Shown here in pieces: positions 6,035-15,785 of a stretch of DNA of 64,000 bases. The translations under genes were made by a program, and so were the position numbers. Numbering within the stretch: the first letter of the stretch is position 1; every line of letters begins with the position of its first letter. The notes under the pieces were generated by a model. It was not told where the DNA came from. It was given only the letters and a program-made list of their open reading frames with translations, and ran no database searches. This DNA is from Cupriavidus pinatubonensis (lineage in GTDB: Bacteria > Pseudomonadota > Gammaproteobacteria > Burkholderiales > Burkholderiaceae): contig NZ_CP080766.1 in assembly GCF_019602855.1 (NCBI RefSeq), positions 248,001 through 312,000 of the forward strand, given 5' to 3'.

Positions 6035-7210
6035 ATGACCTTCACGCTGTTGCAGCGCGCCATCGTTGCCTGCGGCGCCCTTGCCCTGTTGTCGGCCGCG
6101 GCACACGCCGCCGATCCCATCAAGATAGGCCTGATCGCCCCGTTCTCCGGCAGCTTCGCCGATTACGGCAAGCAGATGGAAGCCGGCGTCAAGGCTTACC
6201 AGTCGCTGCATGGCGACACCGTGGCCGGGCGCAAGGTGCAGGTCATCATGAAGGACACCACGGGCCCGGTACCGGATGTGGCCAAGCGTCTCGCGCAGGA
6301 GCTGGTGGTACGCGACAAGGTCGACATCCTGGCGGGCTTCGGCCTGACGCCGGAAGCGCTCGCCGTTGCCCCGGTCGCCGAGCAGGCGAAGAAAGCGATG
6401 GTGATCTTCAATGCCGCTTCGTCGGTCATCACCACCAAGTCGAACTACATTGCGCGCGTGTCGATGACGCTGCCGCAGATTTCGGCACCCATGGCCACTT
6501 GGGCCGTGAAAAACAATGTGCGCAAGGTGGTCACGCTGGTGGCCGACTACGCGCCCGGCATCGATGCCGAGACCGCGTTCAAGACCAACTTCATCGGCGG
6601 CGGCGGGCAAATCATCGAATCGATCCGCGTGCCGCTGCGCAACCCGGAGTTCGCACCGTTCATCCAGCGCATCAAGGACGCCAAGCCTGAGGCCGTGTTC
6701 CTGTTCCTGCCGGCCGGCGAACAGGGCGTCGCCTTCATGAAGGGCTTCCGCGAGCGCGGGCTGGCCGAGGCCGGCATCCGCGTGATCGCCACGGGTGACC
6801 TGACCGACGACCACGTGCTGCCCGCCATGGGCGATTCGACGCTGGGCGTGATCACGTCGTTCCACTACTCGATGGCGCACGATTCGCGTGAGAACAAGGC
6901 CTTCCTGAGCGCCTATTCCGCAGCCAACCCCGGTGCCGGCCGCCCGAACTTCATGACGGTAGCCGCCTATGACGGCATGGCCGCCATCTACGAAGCGCTG
7001 AAGAAGACCAATGGCGCCACCGATGGCGACAAGATCATCGGCGCGCTCAAGGGCATGAAGATCATGAGCCCGCGCGGGCCGATCATGATCGATCCGGCCA
7101 CGCGCGACGTCATCCAGACCGTCTACATCCGCAAGGTGGAAAAACGCGGCAGCGAACTCTACAACATCGAGTTCGACAAGTTCGCCGACGTGAAGGATTC
7201 CGGCAAGTAA
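6035..7210 (+). CDS. Branched-chain-amino-acid-type ABC transporter substrate-binding protein (LivK family)
   Basis: The 391-residue protein has a signal peptide ending near AAAHAADP and then the type I periplasmic binding fold typical of LivK (IKIGLIAPFSGSFADYGKQM). It would bind a small ligand in the periplasm and deliver it to a LivHM permease. A GAGGAG ribosome-binding site precedes ATG 6035. It stands alone: neither neighbour encodes a permease or ATPase. The nearest Liv permease set, at 13284-16645, lacks a binding protein, so the two could work together. The ligand is unknown. Confidence 0.87.
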   Translation: MTFTLLQRAIVACGALALLSAAAHAADPIKIGLIAPFSGSFADYGKQMEAGVKAYQSLHGDTVAGRKVQVIMKDTTGPVPDVAKRLAQELVVRDKVDILAGFGLTPEALAVAPVAEQAKKAMVIFNAASSVITTKSNYIARVSMTLPQISAPMATWAVKNNVRKVVTLVADYAPGIDAETAFKTNFIGGGGQIIESIRVPLRNPEFAPFIQRIKDAKPEAVFLFLPAGEQGVAFMKGFRERGLAEAGIRVIATGDLTDDHVLPAMGDSTLGVITSFHYSMAHDSRENKAFLSAYSAANPGAGRPNFMTVAAYDGMAAIYEALKKTNGATDGDKIIGALKGMKIMSPRGPIMIDPATRDVIQTVYIRKVEKRGSELYNIEFDKFADVKDSGK

Positions 7211-7244
7211 GCCGCTCGCCGCCCCGTTTCCGGACTGGCACCGC

Positions 7245-8201
7245 TCACGGTACCCACCAGTAGCGCGTGAGATGGAAGAACACCGGGGCGGCGAAGACCA
7301 CCGAATCGAGCCGATCCAGCATGCCGCCATGGCCCTGGATCATGTGGCCCCAGTCCTTGATGCCGCGGTCGCGCTTGATCGCCGACATCACCAGCCCACC
7401 GAAAAAGCCCATCAGCGCGATGACGAGCGCGATCGCCCCGGCCATCCACGGTGAGCCGTAAGGCGTGATCCACCACAGCGAAGCGCCGAGCGCCGTCGCG
7501 CTCGCCACGCCGCCGACGAAGCCTTCCACCGTCTTGGACGGCGACAGCAACGGCGCGATCTTGCGTTTGCCGAACAACTTGCCCCACACGTACTGCAACA
7601 CATCGCTGCCCTGCACGACGATTACCAGGAAGGCGATCAGCAGCAGGTTGCGGTCCTCATAGCCGGGAATCGGCAGGGTCAGCAGCGCCGGCACGTGCGA
7701 GATGCAGAACACGCAGATCATCACCGCCCACTGCACGCCCGCACACCGCTCAAGGAAGCGTGTGGTTTCCGATGACAGCGCGGACAGGATCGGCAGGATC
7801 AGGAATGCATAGACCGGGATGAAGATCGAAAAGAGCCCATACCAGCCGATATAGACCAGGATGTACTGACACGGCAGGAAGACGAAGAACGCGGCGACCA
7901 TCGCGCGATGGTCGCCGCGGCGGGTCGTGGTGATCGTGATGAACTCACGCAGCGCGTAGAACGACAGCAGGCCGAACAGCACGATGATCGCGGTACGCCC
8001 CATCGCGAACGCAATGCCGAGGACGGCCACCATCCACCACCAAGCCGATACCCGCGCGGCCAGGTTGTCGATCACTGCGTGCGGCGCGCCGCCCGCCACG
8101 CGCCAGCGCAGCAGCGCGGTCATCAGCGATGACAGCAACAGCACGCACAGTACCCCGCCGAACAGCACGCGGGTGTCGTGGATTGCCTGAATACTCGACA
8201 T
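7245..8201 (-). CDS. ynbB: Phosphatidate cytidylyltransferase homologue (YnbB-like CdsA)
   Basis: A 318-residue polytopic membrane protein with the CDP-diacylglycerol synthase signature near its C terminus (SAIKRDRGIKDWGHMIQGHG). Such enzymes make CDP-diacylglycerol from phosphatidic acid and CTP in the inner membrane. ATG 8201 follows GGAGTG; an in-frame upstream start would run into plsC. It is the last gene of the operon, 4 bp after plsC, so it receives phosphatidate from that enzyme and should feed the CDP-alcohol phosphotransferase at the operon head. It matches E. coli YnbB by context and is probably not the cell's main CdsA. Confidence 0.87.
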   Translation of the reverse strand: MSSIQAIHDTRVLFGGVLCVLLLSSLMTALLRWRVAGGAPHAVIDNLAARVSAWWWMVAVLGIAFAMGRTAIIVLFGLLSFYALREFITITTTRRGDHRAMVAAFFVFLPCQYILVYIGWYGLFSIFIPVYAFLILPILSALSSETTRFLERCAGVQWAVMICVFCISHVPALLTLPIPGYEDRNLLLIAFLVIVVQGSDVLQYVWGKLFGKRKIAPLLSPSKTVEGFVGGVASATALGASLWWITPYGSPWMAGAIALVIALMGFFGGLVMSAIKRDRGIKDWGHMIQGHGGMLDRLDSVVFAAPVFFHLTRYWWVP

Positions 8202-8205
8202 GGTT

Positions 8206-8841
8206 TCACTCCAGCGCCGGCGCCAGCGCAAGCAGTTGCTCGCGGCAGCGGGACAGGAAGGATTCTTTCAGCTCCTCGGGTTGCAGCCGCAGCGGCGTGC
8301 CGAAGGTCACGGTACAAAGGAGCGGAACCGGGATAACCTCGCCCTTCGGCATCACGCGGTTGAGGTTGTCGATCCAAACTGGGACGAATTCGATATCCGG
8401 GCATGCGCGCGCCAGATGGAAAACGCCGCTCTTGAACGGCAGAAGCGGATCGTCGGTCGTGTTGCGAGTGCCTTCCGGGAAGATAATCAGCGAGGCACCG
8501 CCCTGCAGCGCCTGCTCCATCTGAGCAATCGGGTCCGGTCCTGCGCCATCCCGGCCGGCAGTGCGGTCGATCAGCAACGCGCGGAAGACATCGCGACCGA
8601 TAAACCGCCGCATCGGCGAGGCCTCCCAGTAATCCGCACCGGCCACGGGCCGCGTCGCCGCACGCAGGTCCGGCGGCAGGCAGCCCCAGATCAGCACGAA
8701 ATCGCCGTGGCTGCTGTGGTTGGCAAAGTAGACGCGCTGTATGGCCTCCGGCAGGCAACCGTTCCAGCGCGCCTGCATGCCCGTAAGCATCTGCGCGAAC
8801 AGGATGATGGCGCGAGCCACCAGTCGTGAAAGCCAGGTCAT
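8206..8841 (-). CDS. 1-acyl-sn-glycerol-3-phosphate acyltransferase family protein (PlsC-like)
   Basis: The 211-residue protein carries the catalytic HX4D box H42-SSHG-D47 in NHSSHGDF and the substrate-binding FPEGTR motif at 121-126. This family acylates lysophosphatidic acid to phosphatidic acid at the inner membrane. An N-terminal amphipathic or membrane segment (about residues 8-22) is present. It lies 7 bp after the small membrane protein gene and 4 bp before the CdsA-like gene, within the ynb-type operon. E. coli ynbABCD has no such member, so this is an addition to the cluster. Confidence 0.9.
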   Translation of the reverse strand: MTWLSRLVARAIILFAQMLTGMQARWNGCLPEAIQRVYFANHSSHGDFVLIWGCLPPDLRAATRPVAGADYWEASPMRRFIGRDVFRALLIDRTAGRDGAGPDPIAQMEQALQGGASLIIFPEGTRNTTDDPLLPFKSGVFHLARACPDIEFVPVWIDNLNRVMPKGEVIPVPLLCTVTFGTPLRLQPEELKESFLSRCREQLLALAPALE

Positions 8842-8848
8842 GTGGAAA

Positions 8849-9295
8849 TCATTTCAGTAGCAGCAACAGGAGCGCCAGCACCAACTGCGCAAACGTCAGG
8901 GCGCCAGCGAGCTTAAGGAAGCGCAGTGCGCCGCGCGAACGCTCGACCACCGAGCGGCCCTTACGCCCCGGCGCCAGCCAACCGAAAACGGAAAGCGCCT
9001 GATCGAGTGCGTCGAGTTCCGCCGCATCTCCTGACTCAGCCAGGGCGTCGAACAGTCGACGGTCCAGTTCGACACGAGCCAGCAGCCAGAGCTCGGCCGC
9101 ACCCACGACCGCCGCCACCAAACCGAGAATCAGGTACACCAGCGAAGCCGGAGCAAAGTACCCGGCAAGCAGGAGGTTGACCATTGCCAGAACCAGCCCG
9201 GCACCATTGAGCCGGGCGGCAGCGTGCATGGCGCCGGCGGCAATGCGCGCCACCCAGGCATCGCTGGCGGGAAGTGGATGAGCTTCAGTCGGCAT
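8849..9295 (-). CDS. Small membrane protein of unknown function in the ynb-type operon
   Basis: A 148-residue protein with hydrophobic stretches at about residues 32-48, 52-72 and 128-147, and a charged central region rich in Asp, Glu and Arg. No family was recognised. ATG 9295 lies inside the end of the upstream phosphatase gene, an 11-bp overlap that suggests translational coupling. The longer in-frame reading would start deep inside that gene and is rejected. Its tight position between a PAP2/phosphatase and an acyltransferase suggests a role in the same lipid pathway, but nothing in the sequence shows an activity. Confidence 0.75.
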   Translation of the reverse strand: MPTEAHPLPASDAWVARIAAGAMHAAARLNGAGLVLAMVNLLLAGYFAPASLVYLILGLVAAVVGAAELWLLARVELDRRLFDALAESGDAAELDALDQALSVFGWLAPGRKGRSVVERSRGALRFLKLAGALTFAQLVLALLLLLLK

Positions 9296-10679
9296 GGGCG
9301 GCTCCTTGCGGATCGGCAACGGAGGCTTGCAGGTAGTGCGCCAATGCATCGACGCTTTGCGGCCCGAGCACCACGGCGGGACGGCTTTGCCGCAACAGCG
9401 CCAGCACCTGCTGCGGGTCGCGCAAACGTGCATGCAAGCCCAGCCACGCAGCCGCGATCAGCGCGCTGCGCGAGTAGCCAAGGGCGCAGCTGACCAGCAC
9501 CGTGCGCCCGTCCTGCTGCCAGCGTTCGATGACCTCGACACCGGCGCGAATCTGCGTTTGCGATGGCACGGTCAAATCCAGCACGGGAACGCAGCGGTAG
9601 AGCACGCCCGTCACGAGCCGCGGCAGTTCCGCGGTCAGGTCGAGCACGGCATCCGCGCCGGACTCGCGCAGTTCGACTTCGGCGGGGAGGCGACCGATCC
9701 AGACGCCATCGGTGAGCCGGCTGACGGCGGGCTGGCGCCGTGTCCACCAGCGCGAGTTGGCGAAAGCGCCGAGCAGATACGGCCACAGCACCCACCACGC
9801 CGCCATGGACAGGGTTCCGTCAGCACGCTTCTGAAACGCGCCCGGCTTGCCGGCACGGTAAATCATGGCAACGCAGCCCAGCGAGATAGCCGCCGACGTC
9901 AGCAGGAAAGCAGCCAAGACGGAAACGGACACAACCGCGACGCATGCCAGCCCCAGCAGTCCCGCCGCCAATGCGTAGCTCCGCGCAAGCCTGGGATCAG
10001 GCGTGCTTGCATCCGGTCCAACCGCCGGCCTCGGGAGCGCCATGGGAAAAGCAAACACGCATAACCACCCGACCAGCCAGCCCGTCGGAATATCGATGAA
10101 ATGATGCTGGTACGTCGTCAGGACGGAGACGCCGATCAGTGCAAACCAGATATGCAACAACCAACGCCACACGCCGCGCAGATGCGCGGCATACGCGACC
10201 CAGAGAATCACCAGCAGGCTGATATGGAGCGACGGCGCCTGGTTGAAGGGCTTGTCGAAGCCGCCAAGCAGCGTGAAAAGCTGCCCCGGCAGCCCCTCCG
10301 CGGGGGGACGCGCAAATGCAAAGCGCAGTGGAAACGCGATAAAGCATGCAACGGAGATAACCTGCGCCGCCAGCAAGCGCTTCACGTGGGCAAGCAGGTC
10401 CGCGCGGGTCGCCCACAGGAAAAACGAGATGCCATACAACAGGTCGATCGACCAGTACGGCACGATGGACCACGGCACGAACGGAATGCCGCGCTCCCAG
10501 CCGAAGTGGAAATACGGCACGTCTGCACGCTGGCTGGCCAGCCAGTTCGCCAGGCCGTAGGAGGAAAAGAATAGCGCACCCATGATGGCGAGCAGCCCCA
10601 GAGCCAGCCGCCATGGCCGGCCCGGTGCCGGATTCCCACCCAGCGTGGCAGAGCCATACGCTGCGCCGTCGCGCTGCAT
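9285..10679 (-). CDS. ynbD: PAP2-type phosphotransferase/phosphatase fused to a dual-specificity phosphatase (YnbD-like)
   Basis: A 464-residue two-domain protein. Residues about 25-290 are a polytopic PAP2/inositolphosphotransferase-like domain with SLH (150-152) and HHFID (192-196) motifs. Residues about 320-445 are a soluble dual-specificity phosphatase domain with the CX5R signature C398-ALGYS-R404. The first part should act on lipid phosphates or headgroup transfer in the membrane; the second on phospho-esters, perhaps phosphoinositol-like headgroups. ATG 10679 overlaps the previous stop as TGATG, so the two genes are translationally coupled. The architecture matches E. coli YnbD. Substrates are unknown. 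Confidence 0.87.
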   Translation of the reverse strand: MQRDGAAYGSATLGGNPAPGRPWRLALGLLAIMGALFFSSYGLANWLASQRADVPYFHFGWERGIPFVPWSIVPYWSIDLLYGISFFLWATRADLLAHVKRLLAAQVISVACFIAFPLRFAFARPPAEGLPGQLFTLLGGFDKPFNQAPSLHISLLVILWVAYAAHLRGVWRWLLHIWFALIGVSVLTTYQHHFIDIPTGWLVGWLCVFAFPMALPRPAVGPDASTPDPRLARSYALAAGLLGLACVAVVSVSVLAAFLLTSAAISLGCVAMIYRAGKPGAFQKRADGTLSMAAWWVLWPYLLGAFANSRWWTRRQPAVSRLTDGVWIGRLPAEVELRESGADAVLDLTAELPRLVTGVLYRCVPVLDLTVPSQTQIRAGVEVIERWQQDGRTVLVSCALGYSRSALIAAAWLGLHARLRDPQQVLALLRQSRPAVVLGPQSVDALAHYLQASVADPQGAAHAD

Positions 10680-12469
10680 CAGGCGCCCTCGCCTTTCCGG
10701 CGCGCCAGGCTGACCGTGAAGATGCCCCACGGGTCGATGCGCTGCGCGAGCTTTTCGAAACCGGCGTGGCGCACGAGTTCATCCATCTCGGCCTGCGAGC
10801 GGCGGCGCATGACCCACGCGGATCCGGCACGGTGGCTGGTTAGCGCGCGTGCGATGAACTCGAGTTGCGGATGCCACGGCTGTCCCGTATAGACCAGATA
10901 GCCGCCGGGACGCACCGCCTGTGCCAGTCCGCGCAGCGAGCATCCGACCATCTCGTTGTCCCCGAACAGTTCATAGAGCCCGGAAACGATGGCCAGCGTC
11001 GGCGCCGGATTCAGCGCGGCAAGGCTGTCGCCATCGAACGCATCGCCCTTTTCGAAGCGCGCGATCGGATCGAGGCCCTTGCGGCGGATCAGGTTCCGTC
11101 CCTGCTCGACATTGAGGTCGCTGTAGTCACGCAGCAGGATGCTCTCCACCGCGTTGCCGTCGATGTTGCCGCTTTGCGAGGTCAGCGCCTCCAGCACATA
11201 ACGCCCGTGGCCGGCGGCAATATCCACGATGCGCACCGGCTCGCCCATGGCCTGCAGGCGGCGAATGGCCTCGCCGATCAGTTCCTCGACATGCAGCTTG
11301 CGCTGCCGGATGCCACGCCAGCCAATCGCGTCCAGGTAGTTGCGGTCGACCGCCTGGCCAATGCCGAAGCGGCCCGTCGCCTTGTTGCGATAGACGTAGT
11401 CGAGCGTCGAACCCGAATCAAAACCGGTCTGGTGGCCGAGCCGTACGCCTTCGGACAACATGCCGCCAAAGCGCAGCCCTCCACGCACCATGCCCCAATA
11501 CAGGCCCGCAGGACTGCCAGCGGACAGCGGCACGGCGAGCCGGTCGGCCTCGTCCTTGAAAGGCCCCCGCCGGTCGGCGCCCAGCAGCGACACCGGCTCC
11601 GACGGTGTATCGAACTCGCGAACGATGAAACGCCGCGCGGCGGCCACGGCGGATGCGCGATCGCGTTCGCCAAGCGTGTCGTGGTAGAAACCATCGAGCA
11701 CGATGCGCTCCTTCACGCGCGCCCCCAGCCGATCGAAGAACGCGTCCTGCGGACCACGATGCACGACCCAGTCCGCGCCGGAAATCAGCAGTTGCGTGGG
11801 AACCGTAATCGCCGCTGCATCGGCCACGATGCGCTCGCCGGCATCGTAGAGATCGAGCAGCATATTGACCGCGATTGGCCGAGTAATGAGCGGATCAGCG
11901 TTGTAGCTGGCCACGCGCTGCGGATCGTGTGTCAGGAATTTCGCCTTGACGTAGCTGTTGACGAAGAACTTGCCGCGCATCTGCTGCATCAGCTTCAGGC
12001 CGGGCCGCGCGAATGGCACGTAGAGCTTGACCTTGAACGCCGGTGACGCCACGACCAGACAGCGGATGCGCGGCGCATAGTCGTGCACCCAGGTCGCAGC
12101 AAGCACGGCACCGACGCTTTGCGCCACCACGGCAATGCGATCCACGCCGATACCATGCATGGTCGCGATATGGTCGACGAAGGTCTGGATATCGCGCACC
12201 GAACAGGCGAGTCCCGGGCTGTAGCCACGCTCGCCGGGCGAGCGCCCGTGGCCGCGTGCATCCCACGCGAAGAAGGCATGGTCAGGCAAGTCCAACTCGT
12301 CCACAAGATGCGCAACGCGCCCGGAATGTTCATGTCCGCGGTGGAACAGCAGCACGGCACCGCGTGGCTGACGACTCGCAGCCGGCCAGTGCCGGTAGAA
12401 CAGTTCCTGCCCGTCATGGGTGGCAAACGAGGACTCGATCGGCGTACGTTCCACGCAGTGCGTCTCCAC
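10679..12469 (-). CDS. ynbC: Bifunctional alpha/beta hydrolase - class I SAM methyltransferase (YnbC-like)
   Basis: This 596-residue protein is a fusion. Residues about 15-285 form a monoglyceride-lipase-like alpha/beta hydrolase with FHRGHEHSG, nucleophile S118 in AQSVG (the usual first glycine is alanine), a later aspartate in ISGADWV and histidine in GFYHDT. Residues about 310-590 form a SAM-dependent methyltransferase with the motif I-like IVDIAAGHGRYV. The two activities suggest deacylation and methylation of a lipid. It begins 2 bp after the ynbA stop with GTG 12469; GTG 12454, after GTGGAG, is an alternative. It matches E. coli YnbC in order and architecture. Confidence 0.88.
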   Translation of the reverse strand: METHCVERTPIESSFATHDGQELFYRHWPAASRQPRGAVLLFHRGHEHSGRVAHLVDELDLPDHAFFAWDARGHGRSPGERGYSPGLACSVRDIQTFVDHIATMHGIGVDRIAVVAQSVGAVLAATWVHDYAPRIRCLVVASPAFKVKLYVPFARPGLKLMQQMRGKFFVNSYVKAKFLTHDPQRVASYNADPLITRPIAVNMLLDLYDAGERIVADAAAITVPTQLLISGADWVVHRGPQDAFFDRLGARVKERIVLDGFYHDTLGERDRASAVAAARRFIVREFDTPSEPVSLLGADRRGPFKDEADRLAVPLSAGSPAGLYWGMVRGGLRFGGMLSEGVRLGHQTGFDSGSTLDYVYRNKATGRFGIGQAVDRNYLDAIGWRGIRQRKLHVEELIGEAIRRLQAMGEPVRIVDIAAGHGRYVLEALTSQSGNIDGNAVESILLRDYSDLNVEQGRNLIRRKGLDPIARFEKGDAFDGDSLAALNPAPTLAIVSGLYELFGDNEMVGCSLRGLAQAVRPGGYLVYTGQPWHPQLEFIARALTSHRAGSAWVMRRRSQAEMDELVRHAGFEKLAQRIDPWGIFTVSLARRKGEGA

Positions 12470-12471
12470 AA

Positions 12472-13101
12472 TTAGAACGTCGACCGGCGGGCCTGGCTCT
12501 CGCGAGCCTCCTGCACGCCACGGCGTACCCGGTTGATGATGGTCAGCACCGTCAACAACGACAGCAAGATCCAGAACCAGTGCCCGAACCCACCCAGCCC
12601 CTGCCCGCAGCCGACCCAGAATCCGAGCGCACCGAGCACCAGCGCGCGGTCGCTCTTGCCGAGCGGGCCGTCATAGCGCCGGCTCGCGCCGGCCAGCGGC
12701 CCGATCAGGCCCGCGCACTCGGCCACCACGGCCAGGATGGCGAACAGGATGACTTCGCCACCCGACGAGGGCATGGCCCAGGCAAACGGAATGGTCAGTG
12801 CGAGGTCCGAAACAATGTCGCCGAGCTCGTTGAGGTATGCGCCCAGCACGCTTTGCTGCCCGTGTTCGCGCGCGAGCATGCCATCGATGGCGTTCAGCGC
12901 CATCCGCACGAACAGCCACAGCGGCATCAGCAGGAACACCGCGGGCAGCCACGCCAGTCCGCCGGCCAGCGCGCCGACCACCAGGGAACCGGCAGCCGCC
13001 GCCAGCGTGACCTGGTTGGCCGTCACGCCCGACGCTGCAAGCCGTTGCACAGTGGGCCGCAGAAGTGCCTGGAACTTCGGTTTGATCTGGTAAAGCGTCA
13101 T
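12472..13101 (-). CDS. ynbA: CDP-alcohol phosphatidyltransferase family protein (YnbA-like)
   Basis: A 209-residue integral membrane protein with the CDP-alcohol phosphotransferase box at residues 70-95. The family pattern D-x2-D-G-x2-A-R-x8-G-x3-D-x3-D is kept for D73, G74, A77, R78, G87 and D95, but the first and third aspartates are N70 and N91. Members transfer an alcohol to a CDP-linked lipid in the inner membrane. ATG 13101 starts MTLYQIKPKF; the longer frame has no membrane-protein character. It heads the operon ynbA-ynbC-ynbD-148aa-plsC-ynbB. The phosphatidyl acceptor is unknown. Confidence 0.88.
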   Translation of the reverse strand: MTLYQIKPKFQALLRPTVQRLAASGVTANQVTLAAAAGSLVVGALAGGLAWLPAVFLLMPLWLFVRMALNAIDGMLAREHGQQSVLGAYLNELGDIVSDLALTIPFAWAMPSSGGEVILFAILAVVAECAGLIGPLAGASRRYDGPLGKSDRALVLGALGFWVGCGQGLGGFGHWFWILLSLLTVLTIINRVRRGVQEARESQARRSTF

Positions 13102-13283: not shown

Positions 13284-13985
13284 TCAGCCGATTCCCATCA
13301 GTCGGTCCAGGCGCCTTTTGTCCGCCAGCAGGCTGGCACTGTCTGACGCGTGGACCACCCTGCCCCGGTCGAGAACCATCGCCTGCGCAGTCATTGCCAG
13401 CGCCAGCCTTGCATGCTGTTCAACCACGATCACGGCCATCCCGCCCTGCCCGATCAGATTGCCAATCACGCGCTGCAGTTCCTGGATGATGATGGGCGCC
13501 AGACCCTCCATGGGCTCGTCGAGCAGCAGCAAGGCAGGATTGAGCATCAGCGCGCGCGCAATGGCCAGCATCTGCTGTTCGCCGCCCGACAACTGGTTGC
13601 CGAGGTTTCGCCGGCGTTCCTGCAGGCGCGGGAACAGTTCATACACGCGCGCCAGCGTCCAATGGCCCGGACGCGCCACGGCACTCAGGTTCTCTTCCAC
13701 GGTCAGCGAGGGAAACACCCAGCGCTCCTGCGGCACCCAGCCGATGCCGGCCTGCGCGCGCTGGTGGGACGGCAACCGCGCCAGGTCGCGCCCCTGCCAG
13801 CACAGCGTGCCGCGGCGAACGCGCGTAAAACCCATTAGTGTGGCGAGCAATGTGGTCTTGCCCACGCCGTTGCGGCCGAGCAGCGCGAGGCTGTCCCCGG
13901 ACCCCAGCGCAAGGTCGATGCCGTCGATTACCACGGCGTCGCCGTAGCCCGCGCTCAGTCCGTCGATACGCAGCAGCTCACCCAT
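13284..13985 (-). CDS. livF: Branched-chain-type ABC transporter ATP-binding protein LivF
   Basis: The 233-residue ATPase has Walker A GRNGVGKTT, signature LSGGEQQML and Walker B LLLLDEP, with the downstream H-loop in VVEQHARLAL. The length and the motif layout are those of LivF. It energises import through LivHM at the cytoplasmic face. ATG 13985 overlaps the livG stop by 8 bp. It is the last gene of pobA-livHMGF, suggesting an aromatic acid rather than leucine as ligand. Confidence 0.92.
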   Translation of the reverse strand: MGELLRIDGLSAGYGDAVVIDGIDLALGSGDSLALLGRNGVGKTTLLATLMGFTRVRRGTLCWQGRDLARLPSHQRAQAGIGWVPQERWVFPSLTVEENLSAVARPGHWTLARVYELFPRLQERRRNLGNQLSGGEQQMLAIARALMLNPALLLLDEPMEGLAPIIIQELQRVIGNLIGQGGMAVIVVEQHARLALAMTAQAMVLDRGRVVHASDSASLLADKRRLDRLMGIG

Positions 13986-14730
13986 GCACCGCCTCCCCAA
14001 GGTAGACCTCTTTCACGCGCAGGTCGGCGGCGATTTCGGCCGGTGCGCCCTCGGTCAGCACCTTGCCGCCAACAAGCACCGTAATGCGCTCGGCAAAGCG
14101 GAATACGAGGTCCATGTCATGCTCGATGAATACGATCGTGATTTCGCGCGGCAGCGCGGCAATGACATCGAACAGTTCCGCGCTTTCCGCCGACGGAATG
14201 CCGGCCGCGGGCTCGTCCAGCAGCAGGATCGACGGCCGCGTGGCAAGCGCCAGCGCAATCTCGAGCAGCCGCTGCTTGCCATACGGCAGGCAGCGCGTCT
14301 CTACATCGGCCTCGCCATCGATCCGCAGGCTCGCCAGCACGGCCATGGCCTCGTCCACCAGCGCGCGCTGCGACGCCACGGTCCGCGACCAGATGCGCGC
14401 CGCGCCGGTACGTTCGGCCACAGCCAGAACCACCGATTCGAGCACTGTCAGCCCCGGAAACAGCGTGTTGATCTGGAATGTCCGTGTCATGCCCAGGCGC
14501 ACGCGCGCATGCTGAGGCAGCTTGGTAATTTCCTGGGTCCCCAGCCAGATGCGACCCGAGGTCGGCGCCAGCGCACCGGTCAGCAGGTTGATAAACGTGG
14601 TCTTTCCCGCGCCGTTCGGGCCAATCAACGCATGGCGTGTCCCGGGCGCGAAGTTGAGCGAGATATCGCTGTTGGCCACGAACGCGCCCCACTGGCGCGA
14701 CAGGCCTTCTGTACGAAGTACTGCTGTCAT
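13978..14730 (-). CDS. livG: Branched-chain-type ABC transporter ATP-binding protein LivG
   Basis: The 250-residue ATPase has Walker A GPNGAGKTT, the LivG-type degenerate signature LPYGKQRLLEIA and Walker B LLLDEPAAG. LivG pairs with LivF as the nucleotide-binding dimer of a type II-like amino-acid or aromatic-acid importer. ATG 14730 overlaps the livM stop by 4 bp (ATGA). The longer in-frame opening upstream lies inside livM and was rejected. Confidence 0.92.
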   Translation of the reverse strand: MTAVLRTEGLSRQWGAFVANSDISLNFAPGTRHALIGPNGAGKTTFINLLTGALAPTSGRIWLGTQEITKLPQHARVRLGMTRTFQINTLFPGLTVLESVVLAVAERTGAARIWSRTVASQRALVDEAMAVLASLRIDGEADVETRCLPYGKQRLLEIALALATRPSILLLDEPAAGIPSAESAELFDVIAALPREITIVFIEHDMDLVFRFAERITVLVGGKVLTEGAPAEIAADLRVKEVYLGEAVHG

Positions 14731-15785
14731 GGCGCACCGCCTTCGAGCCGTGTCCCGGTACGCCGCGTCAGCCGGCTTCGCGCGGCGTCCATGGCGCCCA
14801 TGACTCCTCCCCTTGCAAACAGCACCACCAGCACCAGCAACAGGCCGATCCAAAACTGCCAGTACACCGGGTTCATGCCAGCCAGTACATCCTGCGCAAT
14901 CATGTACAGCGCCGCGCCAGCCAGTGCGCCATACAGGCGTCCGGTACCGCCCAGCACCAGCATGACGAGCAGCTCCGCCGAGCGCGGAAAGCCGAGCACG
15001 TCCATGCCGACAAACTGTGTCGTCTGCGCGAGCAGTGCACCAGCCACCCCGGCAATCGCTGCGGACAGCGTGAACGTCGTGCGCAACCGGCGCGGCACGT
15101 CAGCACCGAGTGCGGGCATGCGCCGGCCGCCGTCGCGTATGCCGCGCAGCGACAGGCCGAACGGCGACTGGGTAAGGCGCCGCAACAGCAGAAATAGCGC
15201 GAACGTCGCCGCCAGGCTGTACACGTAGGCGGTCTTGCCGATCAAGTCGAATTCAAATACGCCAAGCAGGCGGTCCATGGCCACGCCGGACAAACCGTCC
15301 ACGCCTCCGGTGACGAATGCCGCCTTGTTGGCAGCCTCGAACAGCATCAGGCCGATGCCCAGCGTCACCATCAGGCGCGTGAGATCGCCGCCCCGCACCA
15401 CCAGGAAGCTGCACAGCCAGCCGGCCACGGCGGCCATTGCCGCGGCGGCCAGCAGGCCACTGAGCGGCTCGCCCCAGCCGTGCGCCGCCAGCAAGCCAGC
15501 CGTATAGGCACCAAGTCCGAAGAATGCTGCGTGCCCGAGCGAGACAATCCCCGCATAGCCAAGGATCAGGTCGAGAGACAGCGCGAACAGCCCGCTGATC
15601 AGGATCTGGCTGCCGAGGATCAGGTAGTCCGGCAGCGCAAAGAAGGCCGCGACAGGCAACAGCCAGAACAAGAATTCGGCCGGATGCCAGCGCCCGTCCG
15701 GCAACTTCCGCCGCGCGGGCGCCGGTGCGCCGGCGGCTTCGCCGGACGATGCGGCGGGCCGCATCGCACGCATCAGCGTCTTCAT
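14727..15785 (-). CDS. livM: Branched-chain-type ABC transporter permease LivM
   Basis: A 352-residue inner-membrane permease with a cytoplasmic Pro/Ala-rich N terminus of about 35 residues and roughly eight to ten hydrophobic spans. The motif LILGYAGIVSLGHAAFFGLG is the hallmark of LivM proteins. It pairs with LivH to form the translocation channel. The start overlaps the livH stop by 4 bp (ATGA). Confidence 0.92.
   Translation of the reverse strand: MKTLMRAMRPAASSGEAAGAPAPARRKLPDGRWHPAEFLFWLLPVAAFFALPDYLILGSQILISGLFALSLDLILGYAGIVSLGHAAFFGLGAYTAGLLAAHGWGEPLSGLLAAAAMAAVAGWLCSFLVVRGGDLTRLMVTLGIGLMLFEAANKAAFVTGGVDGLSGVAMDRLLGVFEFDLIGKTAYVYSLAATFALFLLLRRLTQSPFGLSLRGIRDGGRRMPALGADVPRRLRTTFTLSAAIAGVAGALLAQTTQFVGMDVLGFPRSAELLVMLVLGGTGRLYGALAGAALYMIAQDVLAGMNPVYWQFWIGLLLVLVVLFARGGVMGAMDAARSRLTRRTGTRLEGGAP

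What the first reader, a model, noticed from the sequence alone, without database searches (positions are those of the whole stretch)
7245..13101. Six-gene ynb-type operon that looks like a complete, undescribed phospholipid pathway
The operon encodes a CDP-alcohol phosphotransferase, a CDP-diacylglycerol synthase, a PlsC acyltransferase, a PAP2/dual-specificity phosphatase fusion, a lipase/methyltransferase fusion and a small membrane protein, with 11- and 1-bp overlaps at two junctions and gaps of 2-7 bp at the others. E. coli ynbABCD has four of these, and no product is established to my knowledge. The added acyltransferase and synthase would let the operon make its own CDP-diacylglycerol, and the phosphatase and methyltransferase suggest a phosphorylated then trimmed and methylated headgroup.
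Basis: partly seen in the sequence, partly recalled or inferred. Interest (0 to 1): 0.7.

Follow-up and report, generated by a model that had tools for sequence, protein, structure and literature searches.

The report
Arc1 phospholipid operon with altered enzyme
This six-gene bacterial operon is a version of "arc1", a membrane-lipid gene set reported to help another bacterium survive lipid-cutting toxins from rivals; its lipid product is still unknown, and its key lipid-joining enzyme carries a conserved active-site change that may explain what it does.

Summary
In detail: six intact genes on the minus strand (7245-13101) with exactly the stated gaps and overlaps. "Undescribed" is not right. 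The gene set and order fit the Pseudomonas arc1 operon (arc1A-F, PA2541-36), published as an interbacterial-antagonism resistance cluster and later as protection against T6SS lipases; E. coli YnbB has also been studied. I found no published product. Gene content is kept from Cupriavidus, Burkholderia and Rhodocyclales to Pseudomonas, a few Alphaproteobacteria and enterobacterial plasmids; E. coli ynbABCD lacks PlsC and the small gene. The most constant core is CDP-alcohol transferase + PlsC + CdsA (15 of 20 surveyed loci). What I did not find in print: the transferase family has Asn for Asp1 and Asp3 of the "absolutely conserved" metal motif, with Arg one turn before and an acid after. All but one of the family sequences examined carry this; 0 of 53 ordinary relatives do. 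Both Arg that hold the acceptor phosphate in PIP synthases are kept, and a PTPMT1-like phosphatase is encoded beside it. Best reading: a private branch making phosphatidyl-X-phosphate, then phosphatidyl-X, to restore membranes after phospholipase attack. X is most likely glycerol, unproven. The methylated headgroup is unsupported.

The parts
12472..13101 (-). Arc1A/YnbA-type CDP-alcohol transferase (209 aa), first gene
   Evidence: Pfam PF01066 23.6 bits; AlphaFold model pLDDT 93, Foldseek best matches PIP synthases 5d91/6wmv/5d92, TMq 0.67-0.72
12817..12906 (-). Altered active-site signature R66-x3-N70-x2-D73-G ... G-x3-N91-E92-x2-D95 inside Arc1A
   Evidence: R66, N70, D73, N91, E92, D95 in 80 of 80 aligned family members; 0 of 53 ordinary PF01066 proteins have it
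12646..12657 (-). K149-S-D-R152, aligned with RxxR (acceptor-phosphate Arg153) of R. salmoninarum PIP synthase
   Evidence: HMMER alignment to 5d91; in the alignment to 6h53 the register is one residue off; K149 and R152 invariant 80 of 80; role of R153/R191 from passages of PMC4634129
12529..12531 (-). R191 of Arc1A, aligned with R191 of R. salmoninarum PIP synthase (R195 in M. tuberculosis)
   Evidence: alignments; invariant 80 of 80
10679..12469 (-). Arc1B/YnbC-type fusion: alpha/beta hydrolase (Hydrolase_4) + Methyltransf_20 (596 aa)
   Evidence: Ser118, Asp233, His263 and SAM-motif residues D416, G420, G422 invariant in 82 of 82
9285..10679 (-). Arc1C/YnbD-type fusion: PAP2-like membrane domain + dual-specificity phosphatase (464 aa)
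   Evidence: model pLDDT 90; VIA-align 2 matches DUSPs and PTPMT1, best Z 18.9 and 18.8, over residues 316-458
10092..10235 (-). PAP2 catalytic residues PSLH152 ... H192, D196
   Evidence: P149, S150, L151, H152, H192, H193, D196 invariant 81 of 81
9468..9488 (-). DSP P-loop C398-x5-R404
   Evidence: 79 of 79 members that reach it (2 of 81 have a gap there)
8849..9295 (-). Arc1D small membrane protein (148 aa), no Pfam family and no PDB sequence relative found
   Evidence: alignment of 30 homologues, 6 invariant columns D78, F82, D98, R114, R119, Q137
8206..8841 (-). Arc1E PlsC-like acyltransferase (211 aa), NH42-x4-D47 and E123GTR126
   Evidence: H42, D47, E123, G124, T125, R126 invariant 78 of 78
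7245..8201 (-). Arc1F/YnbB-type CdsA-like CDP-DAG synthase (318 aa)
   Evidence: S273, K276, R277, K282, D283, H291, G292, D296, R297 invariant 79 of 79, D299 in 78 of 79

Best explanation
The operon is an arc1-type operon: an accessory, dedicated phospholipid branch that helps a Gram-negative cell keep its inner membrane intact when phospholipases (for instance T6SS lipase effectors) cut its lipids. Proposed steps: E acylates lysophosphatidic acid to phosphatidic acid; F activates it to CDP-diacylglycerol that is not shared with bulk synthesis; A joins it to a phosphorylated small alcohol X-P to give phosphatidyl-X-phosphate; the DSP domain of C (probably cytosolic) removes the phosphate to give phosphatidyl-X; the PAP2 domain of C, the hydrolase/methyltransferase B and the small membrane protein D modify or recycle products (order unknown). 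X is most likely glycerol (product phosphatidylglycerol or close to it). A works with an altered metal site: the two Asp that contact both metals in M. jannaschii PS synthase are Asn, and a conserved Arg next to them may stand in for one metal. Shown here: gene content, conservation, intact catalytic residues, the altered signature, the kept phosphate-binding Arg. Shown by others: antagonism and lipase defence for P. aeruginosa arc1; CDP-DAG synthase activity of YnbB in vitro. Inferred: every reaction of A, B, C and D, the identity of X, and the role in this organism.
For: Same order A-B-C-D-E-F in 30 of 33 Pseudomonas loci, 2 more without a detected D and 1 cut after D, and in other genera. 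PMC8926400: PA2541-36 = arc1A-F, five of six genes for phospholipid metabolism, four like phosphatidylglycerol-synthesis enzymes, defence against B. thailandensis T6SS, a second deletion in the operon adds nothing. PMC12663445: in a tssM1-null background an arc1A mutant is more sensitive to an A. baylyi attacker with only the lipase Tle1. A, E and F are together in 15 of 20 survey loci, in ten of them without B, C and D; in two of the other five genomes an operon-type E lies elsewhere. The own genome has a second CdsA and three ordinary CDP-alcohol transferases, so this set is extra. Acceptor-phosphate Arg pair kept. DSP neighbours in the PDB include PTPMT1, a PGP phosphatase (recalled). YnbB makes CDP-DAG in vitro but cannot replace CdsA for bulk lipid (PMC7018664, PMC6362211). 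No inositol-1-phosphate synthase hit in the genome, 6 of 14 control genomes ring. One locus has a minimal A-F-E set directly behind VgrG, DUF4123, Tle1-like phospholipase and DUF2931 genes on the same strand (L154).
Against: No reaction product is known for any member in what I could search. In MjPSS every Ser or Asn mutation tested in the motif lowers or abolishes activity, partly rescued by extra Mg in some (PMC8633023), so A might not be an ordinary transferase. arc1A is called auxiliary to arc3A in PMC12663445 and was not tied to a single effector in PMC8926400. The P. aeruginosa locus itself was not fetched; its identity with this operon rests on the papers' descriptions, on Pseudomonas relatives and on recalled annotation. 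The A-E-F link has exceptions: E. coli K-12 lacks E, and L142, L143 and L149 lack a full set. No RsmA-type A(N)GGA site is seen before the first gene here. The T6SS neighbourhood was seen in one locus only.
Confidence: 0.55

Rival explanations
1. A backup phosphatidylglycerol pathway and nothing more: LPA to PA to CDP-DAG to PGP to PG with ordinary chemistry.
For: Four genes resemble PG-synthesis enzymes (PMC8926400); Arg pair for an acceptor phosphate; DSP near PTPMT1; glycerol-3-phosphate is a general metabolite (common knowledge), while no inositol-phosphate synthase was found in this genome.
Against: The transferase fails the catalytic signature that all 53 ordinary PF01066 controls have, and its nearest solved relatives are PIP synthases; PgsA comes far lower. 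A plain backup would not need its own PlsC and CdsA in most loci, nor a hydrolase/methyltransferase.
Confidence: 0.3
2. A lysophospholipid clean-up line: B hydrolyses lysophospholipids or free acyl esters, E re-acylates, and A/F/C return the backbone to bulk lipid; no new headgroup is made.
For: arc1A protects against lipases (PMC12663445); B has a Hydrolase_4 domain with a weak NCBIfam match to lysophospholipase L2 (26.6 bits, cut-off 362); E is a PlsC-type acyltransferase.
Against: No B (or only an unrelated weak hydrolase hit, L153) is found in ten A-E-F survey loci while the CDP-DAG branch stays, so synthesis rather than hydrolysis looks like the core. PE regeneration from lysoPE in P. aeruginosa was shown to need Aas (PMC8926400).
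Confidence: 0.2
3. Precursor supply for a glycolipid such as MPIase (GlcNAc-PP-DAG), with F the key enzyme.
For: E. coli YnbB overproduction raises MPIase and restores it when CdsA is depleted (PMC6362211, PMC7018664).
Against: Deleting ynbB alone does not significantly change MPIase or growth (same papers); ynbB was a transposon hit in an ECA strain but is not needed for phosphoglyceride-linked ECA (PMC8609368); it does not explain A, B, C or E.
Confidence: 0.08
4. Phosphatidylinositol pathway: A is a PIP synthase and the DSP a PIP phosphatase.
For: Best NCBIfam, PDB-sequence and fold matches of A are archaetidylinositol-phosphate and PIP synthases.
Against: NCBIfam scores 56.8 and 36.3 against cut-offs 180 and 170; no inositol-1-phosphate synthase hit in the genome; signature not met; K135 and S132 of M. 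tuberculosis PIPS align with Gly.
Confidence: 0.05

Closest known systems
Pseudomonas aeruginosa arc1A-F (PA2541-PA2536), antagonism resistance cluster 1
   Same: Six genes, five for phospholipid metabolism, four like PG-synthesis enzymes; the window's gene order is found in 30 of 33 Pseudomonas relatives.
   Different: P. aeruginosa arc1 is under Gac/Rsm; here no RsmA-type site is seen before the first gene. I know of no phenotype in this genus (searches list only P. aeruginosa work).
Escherichia coli K-12 ynbABCD
   Same: A, F, B and C orthologues; YnbA has the same Asn/Asn signature.
   Different: Order A-F-B-C; PlsC and the small gene are missing; a Citrobacter plasmid keeps A-F-E-B-C plus a small membrane gene (D-profile E 0.0085).
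Class I CDP-alcohol phosphotransferases (PIP synthases 5d91/6h59, AF2299, PgsA)
   Same: Fold, D2, G, D4 and the acceptor-phosphate Arg pair of PIP synthases.
   Different: D1 and D3 are Asn, Arg at D1-4, acid at D3+1.
PTPMT1 (a mitochondrial PGP phosphatase, recalled) and PRK12361-type proteins (DSP fused to a lipid kinase, recalled)
   Same: DSP domain with Cys-x5-Arg and general-acid Asp.
   Different: Here fused to a PAP2-like membrane domain.

Membership tests
arc1 operon (antagonism resistance cluster 1) | Six clustered genes: CDP-alcohol transferase, hydrolase/methyltransferase, PAP2-DSP, small membrane protein, PlsC, CdsA | tested here: met
   Window order A-B-C-D-E-F; same order in 49 of 82 loci, plus 12 with the small gene undetected in a 409-483 bp gap, 14 with E-F divergent. 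The PA2541-36 sequence itself was not fetched; its gene-by-gene annotation is partly recalled.
arc1 operon (antagonism resistance cluster 1) | Protects against interbacterial (lipase) attack | not testable with these tools
   Seen reported for P. aeruginosa only (PMC8926400, PMC12663445)
arc1 operon (antagonism resistance cluster 1) | RsmA site at the first gene (P. aeruginosa regulation, not a feature of the family outside Gac/Rsm bacteria) | tested here: inconclusive
   A(N)GGA within 60 bp upstream of the first gene in 22 of 33 Pseudomonas loci and 9 of 45 others, none in the window; the motif resembles a Shine-Dalgarno site. PA2541 is listed as an RsmA target in PMC4066749 (passage).
Class I CDP-alcohol phosphotransferase | Signature DxxDGxxAR...GxxxDxxxD (eight 'absolutely conserved' residues, PMC4634129) | tested here: not met
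   NxxDGxxAR...GxxxNxxxD in 80 of 80; controls canonical 53 of 53
Class I CDP-alcohol phosphotransferase | Fold and sequence homology | tested here: met
   PF01066 above cut-off; TMq 0.60-0.72 to PIP synthases and AF2299. Treated as a diverged clade with this fold, not as an ordinary member.
PIP synthase | Two Arg that bind the acceptor phosphate (R153/R191 in R. salmoninarum) | tested here: met
   R152, R191 invariant 80 of 80; alignment; register of R152 differs by one residue in the alignment to 6h53
PIP synthase | Inositol-1-phosphate supply in the cell (Inos-1-P_synth) | tested here: not met
   0 matches in the own genome; 6 of 14 controls ring. Uptake of inositol is not excluded.
Dual-specificity phosphatase | Cys-x5-Arg loop and general-acid Asp | tested here: met
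   C398, R404, D368 in 79 of 79 members that reach them
PAP2 superfamily | His/His/Asp triad in PSxH and SxxxxxxHxxxD motifs | tested here: met
   H152, H192, D196 in 81 of 81; the Arg of SRx5HxxxD (motif recalled) is Val in 80 of 81 and the Pfam scores are under the cut-offs
MPIase pathway enzyme (YnbB) | Makes GlcNAc-PP-DAG | not testable with these tools
   Only passages of PMC6362211 and PMC7018664 were seen

The most novel reading that the evidence does not exclude
YnbA/Arc1A and a second, more distant clade form one lineage of CDP-alcohol transferases whose dinuclear metal site has been rebuilt (the two metal-sharing Asp changed to Asn, Arg one turn before, acid one residue after). The lineage usually travels with its own acyltransferase and CDP-DAG synthase and makes a phospholipid that is not yet described, which bacteria use as a phospholipase-resistant or repair lipid when attacked by rivals.
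Probability: 0.35. Interest if true: 0.82.

Novelty: new member of a known kind. Interest (0 to 1): 0.52.

Why it matters
The arc1 operon is reported to protect P. aeruginosa from rivals' lipid-cutting toxins, yet I found no report of what it makes. The comparison here ties arc1, E. coli ynbABCD and plasmid-borne copies into one system, shows that three genes (transferase, PlsC, CdsA) are its most constant part, and points to a conserved active-site change as the thing to test. If the transferase is active, the statement that the metal motif is absolutely conserved needs an exception, and the product may be a defence lipid.

Tried and rejected
Inositol lipid pathway: considered because A is nearest to PIP synthases; set aside because no inositol-1-phosphate synthase was found in the genome.

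Recurrent neighbours as a clue to function: clustering of frames within 7 kb of the 80 named loci gave no functional partner that I recognised; the most widely shared group (33 frames) is LysR regulators by one member tested. Variovorax, Xenophilus and Pseudacidovorax share a long upstream frame in which two members tested have no Pfam family.

T6SS lipase neighbourhood: one adjacency (L154). Over the 299 genomes, 11 have both an A-profile and a PF09994 hit (read off); one is within 3 kb, about 0.016 expected by chance; the test was chosen after seeing the case. Neighbours of five further distant-clade loci (10 proteins), of two others (L152, L155) and of the A-E-F loci L136-L141 (10 proteins) showed no T6SS gene. 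T6SS families other than PF09994 were not searched for.

Fold of the PAP2 half: the VIA-align 2 rows covered only the DSP half; a sequence profile of the membrane half matched phospholipid phosphatase 1 weakly (E 0.014). The methyltransferase half had one PDB sequence hit, chance-like (E 0.078). The small protein had three, all E 0.76 or worse.

Papers: searches (open PMC set only; no preprints). I found no report of an arc1 product or of the Asn/Asn signature in these listings; Sato et al. 2019 (YnbB) was seen only through the review PMC7018664. PMC8926400: sections 5 and 6 whole, outline, abstract and passages elsewhere. PMC12663445: outline, abstract and passages. PMC6362211, PMC7018664, PMC8609368, PMC4634129, PMC8633023, PMC6506517, PMC4066749: passages only.

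Limits of the counts: the 80 named loci are the best B matches of a capped scan, so they lean to close relatives. The A profile was built from sequences with the signature, so what it finds leans to it; of 33 places, three weak ones got no locus and were not examined. The 53 controls are three from the own genome, the 30 best-scoring of 60 genomes and 20 I picked among lower-scoring printed rows; the weakest members of PF01066 were not sampled.

Rows dropped: E. coli row L003 was left out of the alignments used for structure prediction (A5, A6); A was not found by the first search in L050 (found by signature) and not at all in L068.

Full report
What is there. The window holds six intact genes on the minus strand between 7245 and 13101 with junctions of +2, -1, -11, +7 and +4 bp. 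I call the genes A (CDP-alcohol transferase), B (hydrolase/methyltransferase), C (PAP2-DSP), D (small membrane protein), E (PlsC), F (CdsA). The host is a Cupriavidus relative: the nearest named B protein, 97% identical, is from C. numazuensis. The own genome has a second CdsA, five other Acyltransferase-family hits and three other CDP-alcohol transferases, so the operon is additional to basic lipid synthesis.

Conservation. With the window and E. coli K-12 that makes 82 loci. Order by gene: A-B-C-D-E-F 49; the same without a detected D but with a C-E gap of 409-483 bp 12; A-B-C-D with E-F on the opposite strand in front 14 (Burkholderia and relatives); E. coli A-F-B-C 1; other or truncated 6. 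Of 33 Pseudomonas loci 30 have the full order, 2 lack a detected D and 1 ends after D. E was found in 78 and F in 79 of the 82. The 80 are the closest relatives of B, so the sample leans to Burkholderiales and Pseudomonas, but it also holds Rhodocyclales, Reyranella, Labrys and an Acidobacteriota MAG (titles). A Citrobacter plasmid has A-F-E-B-C and a small membrane gene that matches the D profile weakly (E 0.0085), so E. coli ynbABCD looks like a reduced form that lost E and D (inference). E. coli ynbA-D is held at 80% coverage or more by 4242 of 5426 complete genomes.

Core. In an even draw of 299 genomes of the phylum, 17 have the B methyltransferase family and 32 match the A profile at E <= 1e-10; all 17 are among the 32. 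I fetched 20 of the A loci. Fifteen have A, E and F together: six with just these three (L136-L141), four with a distant A (L152-L155), four with all six (L146, L147, L150, L151) and one with A, B, E, F (L148). Five do not: L144 and L145 have A-B-C-D, L149 A-B, L143 decayed A and F pieces, and L142 an A alone with a broken signature. In the genomes of L144 and L145 an operon-type E lies elsewhere (E-values 1.2e-75 and 1.3e-77), in one of them about 40 bp behind a distant-type A hit; the genomes of L149, L143 and L142 gave only weak E matches. A second survey of 369 genomes of the class with the distant A found 8; of the seven new loci fetched, five have E and F beside A, one has neither (L168) and one is cut off by its contig end (L170). 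So A, E and F are the most constant part and B, C, D a common addition.

Altered signature. Class I CDP-alcohol phosphotransferases are defined by DxxDGxxAR...GxxxDxxxD; the first three Asp bind metal and the fourth is the likely base (PMC4634129). In M. jannaschii PS synthase D1 and D3 contact both metals, and Ser or Asn mutations in the motif lower or abolish activity, in part rescued by extra Mg for some (PMC8633023); in M. tuberculosis PgsA1 D1, D2 and D3 bind Mg-1 and D3 and D4 Mg-2 (PMC6506517). All 80 aligned A proteins have Asn at D1 and D3 and in addition Arg at D1-4 and Glu at D3+1. The signature RxxxNxxDGxxAxE...GxxxN[ED]xxD is found in 80 of 81 named or E. coli loci (L068 has no A), in the window, in 15 of 16 loci L136-L151 (not L142), 11 of 11 distant loci, 29 of 30 A loci of the survey (sets overlap; the miss is the L142 gene; three further weak places got no locus and were not examined) and the Citrobacter plasmid, and in 0 of 53 ordinary PF01066 proteins. 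Those 53 are 3 from the own genome, the 30 best-scoring of the 60-genome draw and 20 lower-scoring ones that I picked from the printed list; the weakest PF01066 members were not sampled. A FastTree tree of 51 sequences puts all altered sequences, the broken L142 included, in one clade, support 0.96 (the E. coli tip is labelled ABCDEF there although K-12 has only A, F, B, C). So the change is old and kept, which argues for a working protein rather than decay (inference).

Acceptor. The sequence profile of A matches PIP synthases best and so does its model. The two Arg that bind the phosphate of inositol phosphate in R. salmoninarum PIPS (R153, R191) align with R152 and R191, both invariant in 80 of 80. 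In the alignment to the M. tuberculosis enzyme R152 is one residue out of register, so this rests on the R. salmoninarum alignment and on the KxxR/RxxR motif. No inositol-1-phosphate synthase was found in the genome. A phosphorylated alcohol other than inositol phosphate, most simply glycerol-3-phosphate, is therefore the best guess.

Other parts. Catalytic residues of B (hydrolase and SAM motif), C (PAP2 triad, DSP loop), E and F are invariant in the members that reach them, apart from one Asn at F D299. The roles of these residues are recalled from the families. The DSP half of C is a clear dual-specificity phosphatase with PTPMT1 among its closest structures (Z 18.8, against 18.9 for the first row). 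NCBIfam PRK12361, which matches residues 242-460 of C, is by recall a DSP fused to a lipid kinase, which would put the DSP in the cytosol; the PAP2 face is by recall periplasmic.

Function. PMC8926400 (sections 5 and 6 read; passages) names PA2541-36 arc1A-F, one of three Gac/Rsm-regulated clusters that P. aeruginosa needs to survive B. thailandensis T6SS attack; arc1-3 mutants are like wild type under heat, peroxide, salt and detergent stress, and no single-effector mutant of the attacker relieved the arc1 defect. PMC12663445 (passages) reports, in a tssM1-null background, that an arc1A mutant is more sensitive to V. cholerae, less so when TseL is inactive, and to A. baylyi with only Tle1, with arc1A and aas auxiliary to arc3A. 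I did not fetch the PA2541-36 sequence; that PA2541 is the transferase and PA2536 the CdsA-like gene is recalled, and agrees with the papers' description and with the Pseudomonas loci here. One distant locus, L154, has VgrG, DUF4123, a Tle1-like phospholipase and DUF2931 directly upstream of A-F-E on the same strand; this is a single case.

E. coli data. [quoted passage not shown] passages). A CDP-DAG synthase whose product does not feed bulk lipid fits a private branch (inference).

Verdict. It is not undescribed: it is an arc1-type operon. Its product remains unknown in what I could search. The most useful new point is the conserved Asn/Asn/Arg signature of the transferase and its usual company of PlsC and CdsA.

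Noticed in passing
   Followed up: partly
L201 (NZ_CP045714.1, E. coli plasmid), 6824-10964: A-F-E-B and only a short piece of C (profile search) on a conjugative IncF plasmid, about 5 kb from colicin M and its immunity gene.
   Followed up: partly
L142 (G287), 7791-8327: Lone A relative without E or F has lost the signature (no Asn1), as if decaying or repurposed once the partners are gone.
   Followed up: partly
G043:C1260:28337-29490: A genome with an A-B-C-D locus (L144) also has a distant-type A followed about 40 bp later by an operon-type E on another contig, so both clades can live in one cell.
   Followed up: partly
L054 4877-8038, L055 7760-9298, L081 6034-9249: Variovorax, Xenophilus and Pseudacidovorax share a long frame just upstream of A; the two members tested (L054, L055) have no Pfam family.
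   Followed up: partly
L068 (Acidobacteriota MAG contig, 7136 bp): B (67% identity) and C present, but no A, E or F found on the contig.
   Followed up: no
plasmid collection: B homologues on large replicons listed as plasmids of Shinella, Sinorhizobium and Rhizobium; whether the other five genes lie beside them was not checked.
   Followed up: no
window 13284-15785 minus and 6035-7210 plus: Frames on both sides of the operon read by eye like parts of a branched-chain amino-acid-type ABC transporter (two ATPases and a permease upstream, a binding protein downstream); no family search was run on them.
   Followed up: no
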